The translations under genes and the position numbers were made by a program. DNA of 64,000 bases. Source: Phycisphaerae bacterium (GTDB lineage Bacteria > Planctomycetota > Phycisphaerae > Sedimentisphaerales > Anaerobacaceae). Numbering within the stretch: position 1 is the stretch's first letter; each line of letters begins with the position of its first letter. The notes beneath the pieces are model-generated. The model ran no database searches and was not told the DNA's origin. It saw only the letters and a list, made by a program, of their open reading frames with translations. This document shows positions 38,443 to 61,815 of this stretch, one piece after another. The stretch lies in the NCBI GenBank assembly GCA_012744475.1, contig JAAYBV010000018.1, forward strand, positions 62,001 to 126,000, given 5' to 3'.

Positions 38443-38598
38443 GGATTCTACCGCACTCGCCGCCCCCTGGACAGCAAGAATAGGACCCATACGACCTATC
38501 CGCGCCGCCGCTCCCCCACGCGTCCGCCGGGCCTGTCCCTTGTGCCTCACTTGCCACCTAGGTGGCCGGCTGCGAACCGCAATACACGAGATACGACC

Positions 38599-38627
38599 TT
38601 GACTTTGCCGGGATTCCTCTGTAGACT
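38599..38627 (+). promoter_or_regulatory. Promoter of the HD-phosphohydrolase/YwgA operon
   Basis: TTGACT and TAGACT are separated by 17 bp. The leader to the ATG at 38898 is unusually long (about 265 nt) and contains no convincing ORF, so it may be regulatory. Confidence 0.6.
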
Positions 38628-38897
38628 CAATGGCAGGTGTGCGAAGGAGACCCATGCGTGGAGAGGCTCTAACAATTCGTCCCGCTGTTTCGAAGCCGCC
38701 CATCGCAGCGTGCGACAGGGATTTGGCGCTCGCCACGGGAGACAATCCCGTTCGCATGAGATGGGGTCCGCCTTCGTCTGTTGACGATGAGCCAGCGGAC
38801 GTGTCACTTGAGCGAATCAGATCTTCGAGCAGGGCTGGGTCGGCGAAGGGTGAGGGGCAAAACAGGGAGAATCGAAAGACAGGCTGAGGACAACAAC

Positions 38898-46546: not shown

Positions 46547-46646
46547 CCACGTTGCATCATCCACCTGTCCGACAAGCGCATCATGCCTCGATCCAAGATC
46601 ATGGTCCGCCCGTTGATCTGCTAATGATTATCGAAAGGCCTGACCC
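46547..46646. repeat. Flank X1 of an inverted-repeat-bounded cassette
   Basis: This 100-bp element is about 90% identical to X2 (49208-49307). Its last 26 bp (46621-46646, from CTAATGATTATCG to CTGACCC) are the exact reverse complement of the first 26 bp of Y1 (48860-48885) and Y2 (49818-49843). It lies 240 bp after the GH116 gene; 46308-46546 has no gene. Confidence 0.8.
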
Positions 46647-46682
46647 TGAACCCTCTGACCCTGAACCCTCAACTCCCCCTGT

Positions 46683-47795
46683 TCATTTGGCGGCCGCTTG
46701 CAGCCTGGGGACAGGGATGTTCGTCAGCACGAACGGGATTTTCACCTCCACCGGCCGAACAGCAATGACATGACGAATCATGTCGTAGTTGTCCCCATAG
46801 ATCTGCTCCTCTTTGCCGCAACACTTGGCGCCCCTGCTGCCCGAAATGTCCCCAAGAACCCCCTCCATTTGAAGAATGGCAGATACCCTCCTTGCCGAAC
46901 TGAACAACTCGGTTCTGATAACCGCATAATCCCCAAAAGCAACGCGGCTGCTCAAGTAAGGCGGGTCATTAATCCCAAGAACAGGACTTCCCACGTTTGA
47001 TTTCACCCACGTTGTATAGGAGTAGAGGGCAATCGCGTTCTTCGGCCTGCGAGAGGTGTCTATGACGCGTTGTCCCGACGAGGAGGACGATGAAGAAGGA
47101 CTGACGTATTCTATCGGCTCCGGCAAGGGCGGCGTGGTCGGATCGACACAGATCACCAAATCTGGCACCGCTTCTGTTTCTTGACATCCATAGTTGGGGT
47201 CGAACGGAACGTCCACATCGATCACATCGTCCGCACAGAGGGCGTAGATATATCCTCCAACCACCGCGATCGAGGACGGTAACGTGTTATTCGGGTCAGT
47301 TGACAACTGGATCGTCATGGTGAATGGAAACCACTTCTGGGGAGTGTACGTGAATCCCTGATGCCAATACCACCCATATTCTTGATAGGCGCGACGACCG
47401 CCTGTTTGAGCATTCTCACACTCTAGAGCACGGCCGTCATTATCAAGTAACTCCCAGACTCCAACCGTATTCACATCAAGGGTAATGAAGCTACTCCTAT
47501 CGAGAATACCTACCCGCCCTGAAAGAACAAGAACCGGCAAGCCCGAATCGGCCCCAGCACTACTCTGAGGATTAGAGACCTTGACGGACAACTGCACCGA
47601 ATCCCAGACGAATTCGAATGCATTTGCCAAGTCCCAGTCAAGATCATTGACATCCCCTGATGGAAGAACCTCAGAAGGTGTATCTCCGGCCTCGCGCCCG
47701 ACACCGTCACTCCGAGCTTCAAAGCATCCCAGCAACAAGACCACTGCGCAGATCAGAGAAGACAGATACCGCCCATACTCTTGGAACACTCTCAT
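46683..47795 (-). CDS. Orphan lipoprotein (cassette 1 cargo)
   Basis: The protein has 370 residues. ATG 47795 is preceded by a strong GCAGGAGG. The signal peptide ends in the lipobox LLLGC. The middle is beta-rich with many Val, Asp and Pro residues, followed by a Pro/Ser-rich linker with eight consecutive Ser codons near residue 220. A final domain of about 130 residues includes KNAIALYSYTTWVKSNV and HVIAVRPVEVKIPF. I recognise no family. Codon usage is clearly less GC-rich than in the surrounding housekeeping genes, which suggests foreign origin. It is the second gene inside the first cassette. Confidence 0.7.
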   Translation of the reverse strand: MRVFQEYGRYLSSLICAVVLLLGCFEARSDGVGREAGDTPSEVLPSGDVNDLDWDLANAFEFVWDSVQLSVKVSNPQSSAGADSGLPVLVLSGRVGILDRSSFITLDVNTVGVWELLDNDGRALECENAQTGGRRAYQEYGWYWHQGFTYTPQKWFPFTMTIQLSTDPNNTLPSSIAVVGGYIYALCADDVIDVDVPFDPNYGCQETEAVPDLVICVDPTTPPLPEPIEYVSPSSSSSSSGQRVIDTSRRPKNAIALYSYTTWVKSNVGSPVLGINDPPYLSSRVAFGDYAVIRTELFSSARRVSAILQMEGVLGDISGSRGAKCCGKEEQIYGDNYDMIRHVIAVRPVEVKIPFVLTNIPVPRLQAAAK

Positions 47796-47850
47796 AGATA
47801 CACCTCCTGCTCTTACCATGTGAATTCGCCCACTATTGTTCGCGGCGCTG

Positions 47851-48882
47851 TTATCCGAGCAGCGGGTAATGGAACGTGTCCGCAGGCTTCACTTCACACA
47901 CCTCTGCGCTGAGGATCTGATTCACGTTCGCCTCTGAGTCGTGCACACCGGTGACGGTCCATTGGTCTACGCCACCGTCTGGCAGCATCACATTGAACAC
48001 TACCGTCCAAGTATCCCCAACAAAGGTAAACACAGGGTCTTCGCACAGTTCACGAATCACCAACTCATCGTCCTCCAGGTACTTGAGCCAAGCTCTGATG
48101 GGTCCTATCTTACGCAAGCCCACGCTTGAGCAGGGTATCAGGCGAGGTCCCGTGCGTAAGAATGTGACTTCATTCAAGAAGGCGTACACTCTTTCCGGAT
48201 CGCTGAAATCGTCGCGCGCAAAATGATACTCCTGCAGGATCTCATTCATGGCTGTCAGTCCGCGTCCCGAATTGACGTGGACAAACCCGGCGCTCTTCTC
48301 CATGAATATCCCCGTCTTACCCCGACTCGTCGTTACCATGAACACGTTCTTTGAAGACCAGTTGTATTCAACCACCGCGATTCTCCAGATCTCGTCATTC
48401 AACACCATTTGTGCTAAGGGCAATAGTGCCGCTGGCGTACCATCCGCTATAATCTGTGGCGTCAAGAGTCCATAGGGAGCCCTTACCAAGGCCTCTCGAT
48501 ACTTGGAGGCATGCCGGGCAGCCGGAGGATCGCTTGGCATCTCACTTGGCGCGATGATCGCCGCAGAGCTCCTAGTGTCACGATCCATTTCCTCTGACGC
48601 ACTGACCGCCCTGCTGGTGCGTCTGACGGAGTTCGCGCAGCCACCTGCCATGAGACAACATGCAATCGCCAGAAGGGCTACAAGCGTATGTCTGATGCAG
48701 ACCCGTTGCCCTCCGAAGAGCAGGGGAGTCCTCGGCAAATCTCTCTCTTCTACCGGTTCCGCCCGCGTCGCACTCCCCAGCGGGTGTTTCGAGGCGGCAG
48801 GCAACTGCCTGTTGATCGTGCTCAGAGATCGATGAACACAACCGATTGGAGAGGGTTCGGGGTCAGGCCTTTCGATAATCAT
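47851..48882 (-). CDS. Orphan secreted/lipoprotein whose start lies in the cassette flank
   Basis: The frame encodes 343 residues if it starts at ATG 48882, inside flank Y1, where GGAG is 5 nt upstream. The first eight residues (MIIERPDP) are encoded by the inverted repeat. A typical lipoprotein signal (RHTLVALLAIACCLMAGGC) does not begin until about residue 62, and no usual start codon lies just before it. The first 60 residues therefore look like non-native sequence joined to an older lipoprotein gene, or the true start is non-canonical. The mature part is a mixed alpha/beta domain of about 230 residues without a known family. Codon usage is again low in GC. Confidence 0.6.
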   Translation of the reverse strand: MIIERPDPEPSPIGCVHRSLSTINRQLPAASKHPLGSATRAEPVEERDLPRTPLLFGGQRVCIRHTLVALLAIACCLMAGGCANSVRRTSRAVSASEEMDRDTRSSAAIIAPSEMPSDPPAARHASKYREALVRAPYGLLTPQIIADGTPAALLPLAQMVLNDEIWRIAVVEYNWSSKNVFMVTTSRGKTGIFMEKSAGFVHVNSGRGLTAMNEILQEYHFARDDFSDPERVYAFLNEVTFLRTGPRLIPCSSVGLRKIGPIRAWLKYLEDDELVIRELCEDPVFTFVGDTWTVVFNVMLPDGGVDQWTVTGVHDSEANVNQILSAEVCEVKPADTFHYPLLG

Positions 48883-49012
48883 TAGCGCTCCGCATGCACT
48901 TGCTGGGCGGCATTGGGAGCCGGACTGTGGGAACCTCTCCACGCATTGGCTTCCCTTCGCACATCCAGGAGATAGTCTACAGGAATCTCCCGGCCAAATC
49001 AAGGGCGTATCT
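48860..49012. repeat. Flank Y1 of cassette 1
   Basis: This ~152-bp element differs from Y2 (49818-49969) at about two positions. Its first 26 bp are the inverted repeat. On the minus strand it presents GGAGCGCTAATG, a ribosome binding site and start codon pointing into the cassette. The homology ends at GGCGTATCT, where Y2 runs into 7-bp tandem repeats. Confidence 0.85.
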
Positions 49013-49207
49013 GGAGTCTCGCGGGTGGGGCGGTTACGTCCGCAGGGGAATCAGGGGCACCGGGTACCTTTGTCTTTCGCAGGGCAAGGCTCTCAGAACC
49101 CCACGAGACCCACGCGGACCGTTAACGATTAACGAAGTGGCTGACCCTCCACGCTCACCACCTCCCCGCTGATCCGGTCCTGAAGCACTCCGTCCAGCAA
49201 CAAACCA

Positions 49208-49307
49208 CCACGTTGCATCACCCACCTGCTCGACAAGCTCATCATGCCTCGATCTTAGACCACGACCCGCCCGTTGATCTGCTAATGATTATCGAAAGGC
49301 CTGACCC
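49208..49307. repeat. Flank X2 of cassette 2
   Basis: The 100-bp element matches X1. Its last 26 bp (49282-49307) are the reverse complement of the start of Y2. Between Y1 and X2 lie 195 bp with no gene and a TTAACGATTAACG motif near 49122. Confidence 0.8.
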
Positions 49308-49318
49308 CAAATCCACTC

Positions 49319-49840
49319 TCAGGATTCATTGGCGCTGCCGCCTGTGCAGCACGTTGAGCATCCTTGTCCTCCTCGTCTGCCCAGACTACTCCTCAATGTG
49401 CGACCACAATCATGGAAGAAGGGAGAAAACAGGACAACGATCACAGCTACCCAAGTCAACGGCAGCACCCACGCTCGGACGAACAAAGAGACTGATTCAG
49501 GTGGGCCAATACTTGAGAGACGCACACAGGCAAATGTCGCACAGAGGAGCAACCAAAGCACCAAGATAGTCGCAGCGGGACGAACCACCCAGCGGTCTGC
49601 GGGAGACAACAGGCCCCACAGAAATGATACAGAGAACACTGCTGTTGCACGGATAGCAGGGTCTAGTATCCAGCCAATTCCGCCGATACCGAACCCCACT
49701 CGCACGGATTCGCACCACGAATAGACAGGGTCAGCGGCTACCAGGAGGATAGGGTACGCAAACATCATCGCTGCGACGACGAGCACAACCTCAGGCAGAG
49801 GTGACAGTGGTGTATTGGGGTCAGGCCTTTCGATAATCAT
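49319..49840 (-). CDS. Small membrane protein (cassette 2 cargo)
   Basis: The protein has 173 residues from ATG 49840, which lies in flank Y2 with GGAG upstream; the first eight residues (MIIERPDP) come from the inverted repeat. Four hydrophobic helices are visible: PEVVLVVAAMMFAYPILLVA, AIRATAVFSVSFLWGLL, AATILVLWLLLCATFACV and WVLPLTWVAVIVVLFSPFF. The C-terminal tail has several Cys. No family is recognised. It is the only gene of the cassette and ends 11 bp from X2, so the cassette fits it tightly. Confidence 0.55.
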   Translation of the reverse strand: MIIERPDPNTPLSPLPEVVLVVAAMMFAYPILLVAADPVYSWCESVRVGFGIGGIGWILDPAIRATAVFSVSFLWGLLSPADRWVVRPAATILVLWLLLCATFACVRLSSIGPPESVSLFVRAWVLPLTWVAVIVVLFSPFFHDCGRTLRSSLGRRGGQGCSTCCTGGSANES

Positions 49841-49969
49841 TAGCGCTCCGCATGCACTTGCTGGGCGGCATTGGGAGCCGGATTGTGGGAACCTCTCCAC
49901 GCATAGCTTCCCTTCGCACATCCAGGAGATAGTCTACAGGAATCTCCCGGCCAAATCAAGGGCGTATCT
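49818..49969. repeat. Flank Y2 of cassette 2
   Basis: It is a nearly exact direct repeat of Y1. The inverted-repeat match with X2 extends from 26 to about 29 bp here. It supplies the start of the membrane-protein gene on the minus strand. Confidence 0.85.
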
Positions 49970-50001
49970 CGAATCTCGTATCTTGTATCTCGTATCTCGG
50001 G
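49963..50001. repeat. 7-bp degenerate tandem repeat
   Basis: Units of CGTATCT, CGAATCT and CTTGTATCT-like variants run in tandem. The same unit recurs at about 51752-51785 (inverted), 56853-56886, 57128-57165 and 61650-61683. Confidence 0.7.
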
Positions 50002-50138
50002 GACGGGGTCCCGGTCGTCGGCGGGGCTGGTGTGCGGGCGCACGCCCCACGGCACGCCGGAAGAGGCAGGTTGGGCTTGGGTCCGTGTTCGCCCACCAGA
50101 CAAACCGGCGGCGCTGTCCGGGCGGGGTCCTGGCCGGG

Positions 50139-50345
50139 TCAGTTGTCGGCGGGTTCGCGGCCGCAACACTTCTTGTACTTCCTCCCGCTGCCGCAGGGGC
50201 ATGGGGCATTCCGGGCGATGCGGGGCTTCGGGGCGATGGACTCTATGGGTATGGGAATCGCAGGCATCGGCTCACCCGCCGGCGGTCCGGCCGCCTCTGC
50301 CGTCAGGCCCAGCGCCTGCAGGGCGACGAGCGACGCCGTGCGGCG
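50139..50345 (-). pseudogene. 3' remnant of a SEC-C motif protein
   Basis: The minus-strand frame ends [22 protein letters not shown] then stop, a textbook SEC-C zinc motif as at the end of SecA and many YecA-like proteins. The frame is closed by an in-frame stop at about 50346, and only a linker-like Pro/Ile stretch precedes the motif. The 5' part of the gene is missing, so this is probably a truncated gene. It sits between cassette 2 and the fic promoter. Confidence 0.65.
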
Positions 50346-56850: not shown

Positions 56851-57166
56851 CCGTATCTCGTATCTCGAATCTCGTATCTCGTCGCTCGTTCGTAGTGACG
56901 CCGTAAGGCGTTACCCCCGCCCGTGGCCCGTTGAAGCGTGGGAGCGTAGATGCGTTTCCCTCCGGTCTATGGCCTATGGTCTACCGCCTGCAGCAGCGCG
57001 TTCGAGCGTAGAAGCGTAGATGCGTAGATGCGTTTCCCTGCGGCCTGCGATCTCCAGCTCGACCCCTTCGCACCCTTCAGACGTTCACACCCTTCGCACC
57101 CGGCCAGCCTGCGGCCTGCCGCCTACAGCCTCTCGTATCTCGAATCTCGAATCTCGTGTCTCGCGA
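56851..57166. repeat. Composite simple-repeat island upstream of the CHAT gene
   Basis: In order it holds a 7-bp array (TATCTCG/AATCTCG, 56853-56886), the left half of palindrome R (56888-56925), two 8-bp arrays (GCGTAGAT/GCGTAGAA, about 56945 and 57005-57035), a 9-bp array (CTTCGCACC-like, 57065-57103), GC-rich CCTGCGGCCTG units and a second 7-bp array (57128-57165). No gene is present. Confidence 0.7.
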
Positions 57167-57336
57167 AACCCACACTTTGGACGCCGGGCTTTTTGCCAAT
57201 GGCGCGGAACGCCTGGCGAACAAACCTTGACATCCGCTGTGTCACCTACCATGATGTTCTTCAGCGAAAGACCCCTGACGAGACATGCGAAGAATGACGG
57301 TTGGAGCCTTCTGTGTGCCGGACAGACGTAGCGCGG
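57167..57336 (+). promoter_or_regulatory. Promoter/leader module A (CHAT operon)
   Basis: TTGACA (57227-57232) and CATGAT (57250-57255) are 17 bp apart. The upstream part from ACTTTGGACG to the -10 is repeated almost exactly at 61690-61815. The transcribed leader (AGCGAAAGACCCCTGACGA, then ATGCGAAGAATGACGGTTGG) is repeated at 63193-63262. The leader is about 190 nt long. Confidence 0.75.
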
Positions 57337-57451: not shown

Positions 57452-60400
57452 GACGACGCTTGATTTCCATATCAAACCGGCGGGCAAGAGCGCATTCGGC
57501 CTGGAGGTCTTCCAGCGAGGCAGGTCTCAGCCCCTGGCGGCATCGTCCTTCGAGTACGACCTGTCGTACCTGACGCAATTCGAGATCAACCAGCTTGAGC
57601 CAAGCGAGAAAGACCCGCAGGGACGCATGGAGCGGATCACCGTCTTTGGCAAGAAGCTCTACGACAGGGTCTTCACCCCCGCGATCAAGGACCTCTGGGA
57701 CAAGGCCAAGCACGAAAGTGACTTTCTGGTCCTGTGCATTCGCATCGACCCGGTTGCCAAGGACCTGGAGACGTTGCCCTGGGAGACGCTGCACGATGGG
57801 CACGAGTTCCTGGCGGCAGGCGCGAAGACGGCGGTGTCCAGGTTGCCCCTGGACGTGGAGATACAGGAGAGTCTGCCCGCTGTACCGACGCCTTTGAAGA
57901 TGCTGGCTTTGATGTCGTCCCCGCTGGACTTGCAGGAGAACGAGAGGCTCCAGATCGAGCGCGAGCAGGAAATCCTCCTGCAAGCGGTCAACGCCCCTTC
58001 GGGCCAGGGCAAGCTGCTGCTGGAATTGGAGGACGAGGCCAAATTGGCCGTCCTGGAGAGCAGTCTCGAAGGCGGCTGCCACATCCTGCACTACTCGGGG
58101 CACGGCATTGCCCCTGAATCGGGCGGTGGCCTGCTGCTGGAGGATGGCCAGGGCAAGCGCCGCCCGACGGCAGTTGCCGAGATCATGCAATCTCTGGAGA
58201 AGGCGGAGCACGCGTTGCGGCTGGTGGTCATCTCAGGCTGCCAGACCTGTAAGACTCTCAGCGCTCGGGGCTTCCACGACCTCGCCCGGGGTTTGCTGCG
58301 GCGGGGCATCCCGGCGACCATCGCCATGCAATTCTCGATCTCCGATGCGGCAGGCCTGATCTTCGCCCAGGAACTCTACCCGCGCCTCGTCGAAGGGCAG
58401 AGGCTCGACGCTGCGGTCAGCGCCGCCCGCCGGACGCTGTTGCACCAAGATGATGTCCGCATCAAGGCGGATGCCTTCGCGCCGGTCCTGCTGGCGGCGA
58501 ACAGCCTGCCCTTGGAGACGACCCAGCCGGAGACCCCAGGTGTGGTCGGGCAGCCCAGGATCGACTTCAGCTTCCATCTGCCCCTGCCGCAACTGGCCTA
58601 CGGCTTCTATGGCAGGCGCAAGGAATACCGCGCGATCCGCGATGGCATCATCGCGAAGAACCACCGCGCTGTCGTTGTTCATGGCATCGGTGGCATCGGC
58701 AAGACCGCCCTGATCAGCCACGTCGCCACCAGGCTCCGCGAGCACTTCCGCGGTGTGTACGCCTTCGATTGCACCAGTGCGGCGCTGGCACCGGCGACGA
58801 TCCTGCTGGAACTGCACCGCTACCTGGAAAGACAAGGCGTGAAGGTCTTGCACCAACTCATCGGCCAGTCCATTCCACCCGACCAGCTTGCGACAATTCT
58901 TGGACAGGTCCTGAGCCAGCGGCCCATACTGCTGATCTTCGATAACTTCGAGACGCACCTCACCGCCCAGGATGGCCAGCGCCACGGAATCACCGATCCG
59001 AACCTGGACACGTTCATCAAGACCCTCGTCAAGACCACTGCCACGGGTACGCGGTTTCTCTTCACGACCCGCTACCTCTTCGACCTCGACGCGAAGCGGA
59101 TCGGGGACATCCAACAGGTCCCGCTGGACGACCTGAGCCGGCCCGAGGCCCTGGGACTGATGCAGAGGCTGCCCTGCTTAGCTGGCGCATCCTATGAGGA
59201 CAAGCTCACTGCCTTTGACACCTTCGGCGGCCACCCCTACGCACTCGTGACCCTCGACCGCCACTGCGCTCACCGCCCGCTAGCCGATGTCCTCAAGGAC
59301 GCGAAATCCGTCCACGCCGAACTCCGCGAATTCCTCGCCATCGAACTGAACTACAGCAGGCTTTCCGACCGCGCCAGAGTGCTCCTGACGCGCCTGGCGG
59401 CCTTCCGAAAGCCCGTCCCCCTTGCTGCGGCGGAGTGGACGCTGGGTGAGAGGATGGATGAGGAGACCGTCGCAAGGCAGGTCTTCGCGCGCCGTGATCT
59501 GAATCGTGAAATGAAGAAACTCGGCGAGGCAGAGTTCGTCAAGCAACATAGGGCGAACATGCCCGAGATGAGAAAGGCAGAGGATGTTGCTGCACCTATC
59601 GGCGAATTGGTTGCTTGGGGCCTGCTCACGCCGCAGGAGCAGGATGGGCAGCCTTCGGGCGTGGCAGTCCACAGCCTCGTCCGCGATTTCTGCCGGGACA
59701 AGCTGGGCGAAAAGGCTTGGAGGCCCTGCCTGTGCGATGCGGCGGCCTTCTACACCAACCAGACCAAGCTGCTCTCGGACGACGAGAAGTCGCCTGAGGC
59801 CGTCTGGACGGAGATCGAGGCCTTCGAGTTGCTGGTTGAGGCGGGGCAATACAAACAGGCGGCCTCAGTCCTGATTGTCGCACAGGCCCTTCTCACCAGG
59901 TGGGGCTTTGGCAGACTCCTTGAATCGCTCTACGGGCGTGTGCTCAAGAACCTCTCCGGGGAGTTCGAGGCAGTGTGCCGTGGAAATGTGGCAATACTGC
60001 TCCAACTCAGATGCGAGTACGAGGCAGCAATTGCTCAGCATCAGAGAGTTGGGGAGGCATTCCGAAGTCTTGGTGACATGCGCAACGTAGCGGCGTCCCT
60101 GCACGAGATCGGGACGATTCACCAACGGCGTGGCGACTACGAGCAGGCCCTGCGGTTCTATGAACAATCCCGAGAGATCATAGAAGAGCTGGGCGACCGC
60201 GCGGGCGTGTCGACGTCCCTGCACCAGATCGGGACGATTCACCAAGCCTGGGGTGACTACGAGCAGGCCCTGCGGTTCTATGAACAATCCCGAAAGATCG
60301 CCGAAGAGCTGGGCGACCGCGCGGGCCTCGCGACGTCCCTGCACCAGATCGGGATGATTCACCAACTCCGCAGCGAGTACAACCAGGCCCTGTGCTGCTA

Positions 60401-60857
60401 TGAACAGTACCGAAAGATCCTCGAAAGGCTGGGCGACCGCGCGGGCTACGCGAAGTCCCTGCATCAGATCGGGATGATTCACCAACTCCGGGGCGACTAC
60501 GAGCAGGCCCTGCGGTTCTATGAACAATCCCGAAAGATCGCCGAAGAGCTGGGCGACCGCGCGGGCATAGCCAGCTCACACGGACAGATGGGCAAGCTCT
60601 ACGCTGACACGAAACGGTATCGCGATGCGTTCGAGCACTTCTTGACGGCTCTGGCCATCTTCACCGAGATAGGGGCACCGGAAGGCTCCAAAGCCGCGCG
60701 TGACCTCAGAAACGTGCGTGGTCTTTGGGGCGCAGCCGACTTCGATAAAGCGTGGCGAGAAAGGACAGGCCATGAAGTGGCGGAATGGTTCATGAAAGAC
60801 ATCGATGAGACAGGCGACCAGTCGCAGGATGAGACAGAGGAGCGAGCCGATGGGTAA
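57450..60857 (+). CDS. CHAT protease-STAND ATPase-TPR protein
   Basis: The protein has 1135 residues. ATG 57450 follows GGAGG at 4 nt. Residues about 80-350 form a CHAT (caspase-like) domain with catalytic His218 (HYSGHG) and Cys264 (VVISGCQTC). Residues about 385-720 form an NB-ARC/STAND ATPase: P-loop VVHGIGGIGKTAL with Lys418, Walker B-like ILLIFDNFE, sensor TRFLFTTRY and GGHPYAL. TPR repeats of 40 residues fill about 860-1090, five of them nearly identical (YEQALRFYEQSRKIAEELGD). The design, effector-switch-sensor, is that of NLR-like immune proteins, in which sensing of a trigger activates the protease. It heads a three-gene operon. Confidence 0.93.
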   Translation: MTTLDFHIKPAGKSAFGLEVFQRGRSQPLAASSFEYDLSYLTQFEINQLEPSEKDPQGRMERITVFGKKLYDRVFTPAIKDLWDKAKHESDFLVLCIRIDPVAKDLETLPWETLHDGHEFLAAGAKTAVSRLPLDVEIQESLPAVPTPLKMLALMSSPLDLQENERLQIEREQEILLQAVNAPSGQGKLLLELEDEAKLAVLESSLEGGCHILHYSGHGIAPESGGGLLLEDGQGKRRPTAVAEIMQSLEKAEHALRLVVISGCQTCKTLSARGFHDLARGLLRRGIPATIAMQFSISDAAGLIFAQELYPRLVEGQRLDAAVSAARRTLLHQDDVRIKADAFAPVLLAANSLPLETTQPETPGVVGQPRIDFSFHLPLPQLAYGFYGRRKEYRAIRDGIIAKNHRAVVVHGIGGIGKTALISHVATRLREHFRGVYAFDCTSAALAPATILLELHRYLERQGVKVLHQLIGQSIPPDQLATILGQVLSQRPILLIFDNFETHLTAQDGQRHGITDPNLDTFIKTLVKTTATGTRFLFTTRYLFDLDAKRIGDIQQVPLDDLSRPEALGLMQRLPCLAGASYEDKLTAFDTFGGHPYALVTLDRHCAHRPLADVLKDAKSVHAELREFLAIELNYSRLSDRARVLLTRLAAFRKPVPLAAAEWTLGERMDEETVARQVFARRDLNREMKKLGEAEFVKQHRANMPEMRKAEDVAAPIGELVAWGLLTPQEQDGQPSGVAVHSLVRDFCRDKLGEKAWRPCLCDAAAFYTNQTKLLSDDEKSPEAVWTEIEAFELLVEAGQYKQAASVLIVAQALLTRWGFGRLLESLYGRVLKNLSGEFEAVCRGNVAILLQLRCEYEAAIAQHQRVGEAFRSLGDMRNVAASLHEIGTIHQRRGDYEQALRFYEQSREIIEELGDRAGVSTSLHQIGTIHQAWGDYEQALRFYEQSRKIAEELGDRAGLATSLHQIGMIHQLRSEYNQALCCYEQYRKILERLGDRAGYAKSLHQIGMIHQLRGDYEQALRFYEQSRKIAEELGDRAGIASSHGQMGKLYADTKRYRDAFEHFLTALAIFTEIGAPEGSKAARDLRNVRGLWGAADFDKAWRERTGHEVAEWFMKDIDETGDQSQDETEERADG
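60093..60570. repeat. 120-bp tandem DNA repeats encoding TPR units
   Basis: Four to five units of 120 bp lie in frame. The segment GAGCAGGCCCTGCGGTTCTA recurs exactly at about 60139, 60259 and 60499. Identity at DNA level means recent duplication or gene conversion within the sensor region. Confidence 0.85.
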
Positions 60858-61536: not shown

Positions 61537-61582
61537 CTCCTGGTCGGGAGGTGCCGCATGGGCTGAAGCCCATCCTGCGGCC

Positions 61583-61815
61583 CTTCGCACCCTTCAGATG
61601 TTTGCACCCTTCCCACCCGGTCGGCCTCCGGCCGGCGGCCTACAGCCTCTCGTATCTCGAATCTCGTATCTCGAATCTCGTGAACCGCGCACTTTGGACG
61701 GCGGGCTTTTGCCAATGGCGCGGAATGCCTGGCGAACAACCCTTGACATCCGCTGTGCCCCCTGCCATGATGTTCTTCAGCGAAACACCCCCTGCGAAGC
61801 TGTGACGAACGGCAG
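61583..61815 (+). promoter_or_regulatory. Promoter module B (DUF1016 gene) with repeat island
   Basis: A 9-bp array and a 7-bp array (61650-61683) precede TTGACA (61743-61748), 17 bp, CATGAT (61766-61771). From about 61622 to 61796 the sequence matches the region before the CHAT gene closely. The leader to ATG 61858 is about 80 nt. Confidence 0.75.

What the first reader, a model, noticed from the sequence alone, without database searches (positions are those of the whole stretch)
46547..49969. Two tandem cassettes bounded by perfect 26-bp inverted repeats and lacking any recombinase
Flank X (100 bp) and flank Y (152 bp) occur twice in the order X-cargo-Y-X-cargo-Y. The X end and Y start are exact 26-bp inverted repeats. 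Cargo is only on the minus strand and is low in GC: two orphan lipoproteins in cassette 1, one membrane protein in cassette 2. This looks like a non-autonomous mobile cassette or gene-capture system.
Basis: partly seen in the sequence, partly recalled or inferred. Interest (0 to 1): 0.8.

Follow-up and report, generated by a model that had tools for sequence, protein, structure and literature searches.

The report
Orphan RHS partner-gene array with repeats
Two small gene cassettes with matching repeat ends look like leftovers of rearranged bacterial RHS (a large polymorphic, toxin-type surface protein) genes, in which partner genes survive under a recycled RHS-type promoter while the RHS gene body is gone; this is a new variant of a known kind of rearrangement hotspot rather than a new mobile element.

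Summary
The anatomy is real: X (46547-46646, 49208-49307) and Y (48859-49010, 49817-49969) flank minus-strand cargo, with perfect 27-bp and 30-bp inverted repeats. X and Y recur in this genome and one congener. Wherever both lie close together (six cassettes) the order is always Y-cargo-X. They are not ordinary independent intergenic repeats, but no recombinase, target duplication or cut-and-paste boundary was found. What identifies them is RHS. In the cargo direction, Y is a conserved sigma-70-like promoter, ribosome site and start codon (MRGEVPTIRP...). The same leader is fused in frame to RHS core fragments in this genome (C80) and a congener (G004 C22, C44). X abuts RHS core fragments in six of twelve own-genome copies, including the window's second X. 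Two loci read RHS core - variable tip - partner gene - X. Cargo 1 is 38% identical to the gene directly behind an RHS core-tip gene in congener G005. Best reading: tandem orphan RHS partner modules made by recombination among repeated RHS leaders and cores, with core and tip lost. The repeat arm is a ~34-bp dispersed sequence that X and Y share in opposite orientation; its function is unknown. Immunity function is inferred; most cargo-1 relatives are not RHS-linked.

The parts
46547..46646 (-). X copy 1 (flank downstream of cargo 1); in cargo orientation: repeat arm, then the X leader (conserved ATGATG...CTTGTCGGACAGG)
   Evidence: homology continues to about 46520 in C58
46620..46646 (.). inverted-repeat arm of cassette 1, left (27 bp perfect, 37 bp with 1 mismatch)
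46683..47819 (-). cargo gene 1: 378-aa protein with lipoprotein-like signal; 38-39% identical to the gene directly behind an RHS core-tip gene in congener G005:C18; conserved C-terminal IRHxIAVxPVEVKIPFVLTNIP
   Evidence: no Pfam/NCBIfam/PADLOC match
47851..48738 (-). cargo gene 2: lipoprotein-like protein (LVALLAIACCLMAGGC), found only in this genome; the open frame extends upstream to the ATG inside the repeat arm (48882)
48859..49021 (-). Y copy 1: sigma-70-like promoter (-35 48998-49002, -10 48974-48979, 17-18-bp spacer), SD 48950-48958, start ATG 48946, leader, repeat arm
48863..48946 (-). 27-codon leader ORF MRGEVPTVRLPMPPSKCMRSANDYRKA*, the counterpart of the start of RHS fusions in C80 and G004
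48860..48886 (.). inverted-repeat arm of cassette 1, right
49159..49197 (-). RHS core remnant LDGVLQDRISGEV directly behind X copy 2
   Evidence: 92% over 13 aa; same X|core junction as C10, C64, C65, C58
49208..49307 (-). X copy 2
49281..49310 (.). inverted-repeat arm of cassette 2, left (30 bp perfect)
49319..49840 (-). cargo gene 3: membrane protein, about 173 aa counted from the ATG inside the repeat arm
49817..49978 (-). Y copy 2 with the same promoter, SD, leader (ATG 49904) and repeat arm 49815-49844
38584..38702 (+). third Y copy in the window, without repeat arm, upstream of a gene that looks HD-domain-like

Best explanation
The region is a tandem array of orphan RHS (rearrangement hotspot) modules. 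In the direction of transcription (minus strand) each unit is Y - cargo - X. Y is a recycled promoter, ribosome-binding site and first codons of RHS module genes. X is the 5' stub that precedes the next RHS core fragment. The cargo are the genes that used to lie behind an RHS core-plus-tip gene. Recombination among the many near-identical RHS leaders and cores, with illegitimate joins, removed the RHS core and its variable C-terminal tip and left the partner genes expressed from the RHS-type promoter, as in orphan immunity arrays of RHS and type VI effector loci. The ~34-bp sequence forming the inverted-repeat arms is a dispersed sequence tied to these loci. SHOWN: anatomy, recurrence, order rule, fusion of Y to RHS cores, X next to RHS cores, partner-gene homology for cargo 1. 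INFERRED: that core and tip were deleted here, that the recombination is RHS-driven, that Y drives the cargo. GUESSED: that the cargo act as immunity proteins.
For: (1) Y leader fused in frame to RHS core: own C80 (MRGEVPTIRPIVPTPRGDAEWFAQSVEYYADNDAAQSG..., E 3e-20), G004 C22 (5e-24) and C44 (5e-30). (2) DNA behind X matches the core of an intact 2572-aa RHS gene of congener G005 (about 72% over about 275 nt; RHS confirmed by NCBIfam). X abuts RHS core in 6 of 12 own copies, against 20 of 2000 control windows drawn from the same loci, most of which overlap those very places. (3) Loci C64 and C65 read RHS core - tip - partner - X; in C58 an RHS core is joined straight to the arm and X. Five of the six own-genome loci with RHS core pieces carry X or Y. 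(4) Cargo 1 is homologous (E 4e-59) to the gene behind the RHS core-tip gene in G005:C18, and C10 cargo a to the C65 RHS partner (E 2e-8) and the second G005:C18 gene (E 1e-23). C10 cargo b is an ankyrin protein; ankyrins are a described immunity type of polymorphic toxins, also in planctomycetes (PMC3482391). (5) Six of six Y+X cassettes have the same order and orientation. (6) Y carries a conserved -35/-10, SD and ATG across 13 copies.
Against: Six of 12 X copies and most Y copies have no detectable RHS core beside them; some Y precede genes of other types (C42, window 38654). Of about 20 inspected cargo-1 family loci outside the window, only G005:C18 is next to RHS; the others sit among different genes, several with other secreted proteins. 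Cargo 2 has no homologue in 89 family genomes and cargo 3 was not searched that way. No tip remnant was seen between Y and cargo in the window. The perfect pairing of the arms in the window is not explained.
Confidence: 0.66

Rival explanations
1. Non-autonomous mobile cassette or gene-capture element whose ends (X, Y or the 26-30-bp arms) are recognised by a recombinase elsewhere; RHS genes are simply frequent cargo or targets.
For: Six cassettes with different cargo and a fixed order; perfect arms in the window; arms found in tandem in C46 and alone in C62 and C51.
Against: Arms are internal; no target duplication; solo X and solo Y copies; X joins RHS core at more than one core position (C10/C65 versus C46) and Y joins cores at different points; the only Y1 transposase lacks the ends; no recombinase in any cassette.
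Confidence: 0.13
2. X, Y and the 34-bp arm are ordinary dispersed intergenic repeats of a repeat-rich genome; the cassettes are chance neighbours plus local tandem duplication.
For: Solo copies exist; the genome has many other short repeats; cargo-1 relatives mostly lie away from RHS.
Against: Order and orientation are the same in 6 of 6 cassettes; Y has a promoter, SD and start codon and is fused in frame to RHS cores in two genomes; RHS core proximity far above control.
Confidence: 0.13
3. The arms are functional in the transcript: pairing of the 5' and 3' ends of the cargo mRNA (processing, stability or termination) is selected.
For: 27-30-bp perfect pairing in both window cassettes.
Against: Pairing is absent or decayed in C46, C50, C25 and C117; no covariation in X; X alone does not fold clearly better than shuffles (z -1.27).
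Confidence: 0.05

Closest known systems
Orphan rhs-CT/rhsI and cdiA-CT/cdiI modules (Poole et al. 2011, PMC3150448)
   Same: RHS core fragments followed by variable tip and a small partner gene; orphan modules with varying amounts of core sequence; rearrangement hotspot
   Different: Here core and tip are absent in the window cassettes, each unit has its own promoter-leader Y, and cargo is flanked by a shared inverted sequence; partner function untested
Orphan immunity-gene arrays of V. cholerae type VI clusters (PMC5361080) and heterogeneous polyimmunity loci (PMC3482391)
   Same: Arrays of different partner genes left after effector displacement, same orientation
   Different: Not a type VI cluster; cargo are long lipoprotein-like or membrane proteins without known immunity domains; separate promoter copies
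MITEs / IS-derived mobile insertion cassettes
   Same: Short, repeated, inverted repeats, no recombinase
   Different: Repeats internal, no target duplication, no autonomous partner, flanks made of RHS pieces
Integron gene cassettes
   Same: Variable single genes in a fixed orientation with repeated flanks
   Different: Each unit has its own promoter; repeats are on both sides and tied to RHS pieces; no integrase seen; attC-type folding was not tested

Membership tests
Orphan RHS modules | Fragment of RHS core homologous to a full-length RHS gene in the same locus | tested here: met
   LDGVLQDRISGEV at 49159-49197 in the window is short (13 aa, E 0.001) but at the same X|core junction as C10, C64, C65, which carry longer cores
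Orphan RHS modules | Variable C-terminal tip (toxin) directly before the partner gene | tested here: not met
   No core between Y and cargo in the window and no tip seen there; both present in C64 and C65. The window is therefore called a derivative, not an intact module
Orphan RHS modules | Partner gene homologous to genes found behind RHS core-tip genes | tested here: met
   Cargo 1 versus G005:C18, 38%, E 4e-59. Not shown for cargo 2 or 3 (cargo 3 untested)
Polymorphic-toxin immunity genes | Neutralises a cognate toxin | not testable with these tools
   needs co-expression assay
MITE / insertion cassette | Terminal inverted repeats with target-site duplication | tested here: not met
   Arms lie on the cargo side of X and Y; no direct repeats seen at the outer edges by eye
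MITE / insertion cassette | Autonomous relative encoding a recombinase with the same ends | tested here: inconclusive
   Only one Y1 transposase in the genome without these ends; other transposase families and the wider genus were not scanned
Integron cassette | attC sites and integrase | not tested
   no integrase or attC search was made; X was folded only as RNA

The most novel reading that the evidence does not exclude
The ~34-bp arm is an active recombination site through which RHS partner modules are captured between a promoter-leader (Y) and an RHS re-entry leader (X), i.e. a site-specific loading system for RHS cargo in this planctomycete-like genus.
Probability: 0.1. Interest if true: 0.7.

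Novelty: new variant of a known kind. Interest (0 to 1): 0.4.

Why it matters
It suggests that RHS-type rearrangement hotspots also shed orphan partner genes in a genus outside the usual proteobacterial models, and that a promoter-plus-start-codon leader is copied around with them. That would give displaced partner genes their own expression. It also shows how RHS wreckage can mimic a mobile cassette with inverted-repeat ends, which matters for repeat-based genome scans.

Tried and rejected
Rfam search: nothing. X as a conserved RNA: no covariation, z -1.27. The built-in sigma-70 scan did not report Y: its -35 TTGATT matches TTGACA in 4 of 6, but its -10 TAGACT matches TATAAT in only 4 of 6 or fewer, below the tool's 9-of-12 rule; the promoter claim rests on conservation across 13 copies. 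Y1 transposase as owner of the ends: ends absent around C22. Exact and degenerate arm searches in GTDB genomes: 0, and one unrelated Syntrophaceae contig, so the arm is close to genus-specific. A cassette formed of Y-gap-X (449-bp MITE with terminal repeats) was considered and dropped because X and Y occur without that pairing elsewhere. Structure prediction was not attempted: an alignment would have needed sequences whose eligibility was unclear, and a single sequence usually gives a poor model.

Full report
OBSERVATION. Cargo GC is 0.53-0.56 against 0.63 for the window. The arms lie on the inner side of X and Y, so they are not the outer ends of the unit.

RECURRENCE AND ORDER. The window is contig C85 62001-126000 of a 5.75-Mb, 118-contig genome. 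X recurs in C58, C65, C10, C46, C118, C64, C50 and C117 / the end of C46; Y in C42, C10 (two), C50, C46, C80, C25, C117 and at window 38584-38702. Six cassettes have both: window (two), C10, C46, C50, C117; all read Y-cargo-X in the same orientation. Several copies lie at contig ends, as expected for multi-copy sequence. Outside this genome, clear copies are found only in congeners, best in G004; one short X hit in another genus (G072) has E 9e-4 only. The arm pattern gave nothing in GTDB genomes except one unrelated contig.

WHAT Y IS. Read with the cargo, Y is a TTGA-type -35, a 17-18-bp spacer, TAGACT/TAGGCT -10, GAAGGGAAG and ATGCG, conserved in its key positions over 13 copies. The consensus scanner did not flag it. 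In three places the ATG opens a frame fused to RHS core sequence: own C80, and G004 C22 and C44, where the core part VYEYDVYGQ...TGLYYYRARYYNP follows after an intergenic-repeat-like insert. In the window the frame closes after 27 codons inside the repeat arm.

WHAT X IS. The sequence behind X in C10 matches the core of a 2572-aa RHS gene of congener G005, which NCBIfam identifies as RHS core / Rhs_assc_core. X abuts core sequence in six of twelve own-genome copies: window X2, C10, C58, C64, C65 at DGVLQDRISGEV, and C46 at RRIA-DVDGVV (weak, E 0.003). C50b and C50a look similar by eye but gave no hit. Control windows hit in 20 of 2000, most of them the same spots.

RHS LOCI WITH X. C65 and C64 read RHS core - variable tip - partner gene - X; the C65 tip contains a HELRH motif. 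In C58 the RHS core breaks off at SDADG and continues directly into arm and X. Of six loci with RHS core pieces in this genome, C10, C58, C64, C65 and C80 carry X or Y; C73 has a leader that looks related.

CARGO. Cargo 1 is homologous to the gene directly behind the RHS core-tip gene of G005:C18 (38%, E 4e-59) and to a gene in C25 beside a Y copy. C10 cargo a is homologous to the C65 RHS partner and to the second G005:C18 gene. C10 cargo b is an ankyrin protein. No family is known for the three window cargo proteins. In the family at large the cargo-1 type occurs in 17 of 89 genomes, and in the inspected loci other than G005:C18 no RHS core was detected; several lie among other secreted proteins. 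So 'RHS partner' is a local, genus-level association for cargo 1, and 'immunity' is a guess from the analogy with known orphan modules (PMC3150448, PMC5361080, PMC3482391).

THE ARMS. The shared arm is about 34 bp (GCTAATGATTATCGAAAGGCCTGACCCYRAAYCC). It is part of nearly every X and of the Y copies in the window, C10, C42 and C50. It stands twice in tandem in C46, alone in C62 and C51, and upstream of Y in G004 C22. Perfect pairing within a cassette is a feature of the window copies; it is nearly complete in C10 and decayed or missing in C46, C50, C25 and C117, so it is probably a by-product of shared recent sequence. An ATG inside the arm is in frame with cargo 2 and cargo 3.

VERDICT. A derived, tip-less array of orphan RHS partner modules is the best-supported reading. 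It works like orphan immunity arrays; the defining tip is missing here, so it is filed as a variant, not as an intact orphan module. A mobile-element reading is not excluded but has no positive evidence beyond recurrence and the arms.

Noticed in passing
window 38584-38702: A further Y promoter-leader copy without the repeat arm, upstream of a gene that by eye looks HD-domain-like.
   Followed up: partly
window 50130-50230: What looks like a SEC-C motif fragment ([14 protein letters not shown]-like, minus strand) beside Y2; possibly a pseudogene tail.
   Followed up: no
L056 7456-7485 (G000:C10): A short palindromic repeat around GGGGCGAATAATCATTCGCCCC with dozens of listed copies in this genus, REP-like; one copy lies inside an RHS core remnant.
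   Followed up: no
window 59970-60689: 120-bp direct repeats in tandem, five overlapping 240-nt family members.
   Followed up: no
window 57064-57275 and 61581-61791: Two adjoining repeat families (130 nt and 85 nt, 87-93% identical) duplicated 4.5 kb apart.
   Followed up: no
L143 4877-6826 and L144 6361-8331: Similar membrane-protein genes stand beside RHS pieces in own C73 and congener G005:C18, suggesting a syntenic RHS locus.
   Followed up: no
L059 4520-5266 (G000:C50): A gene between Y and X copies in C50 matches PADLOC candidate defence model PDC-S31 (E 1.6e-25).
   Followed up: no
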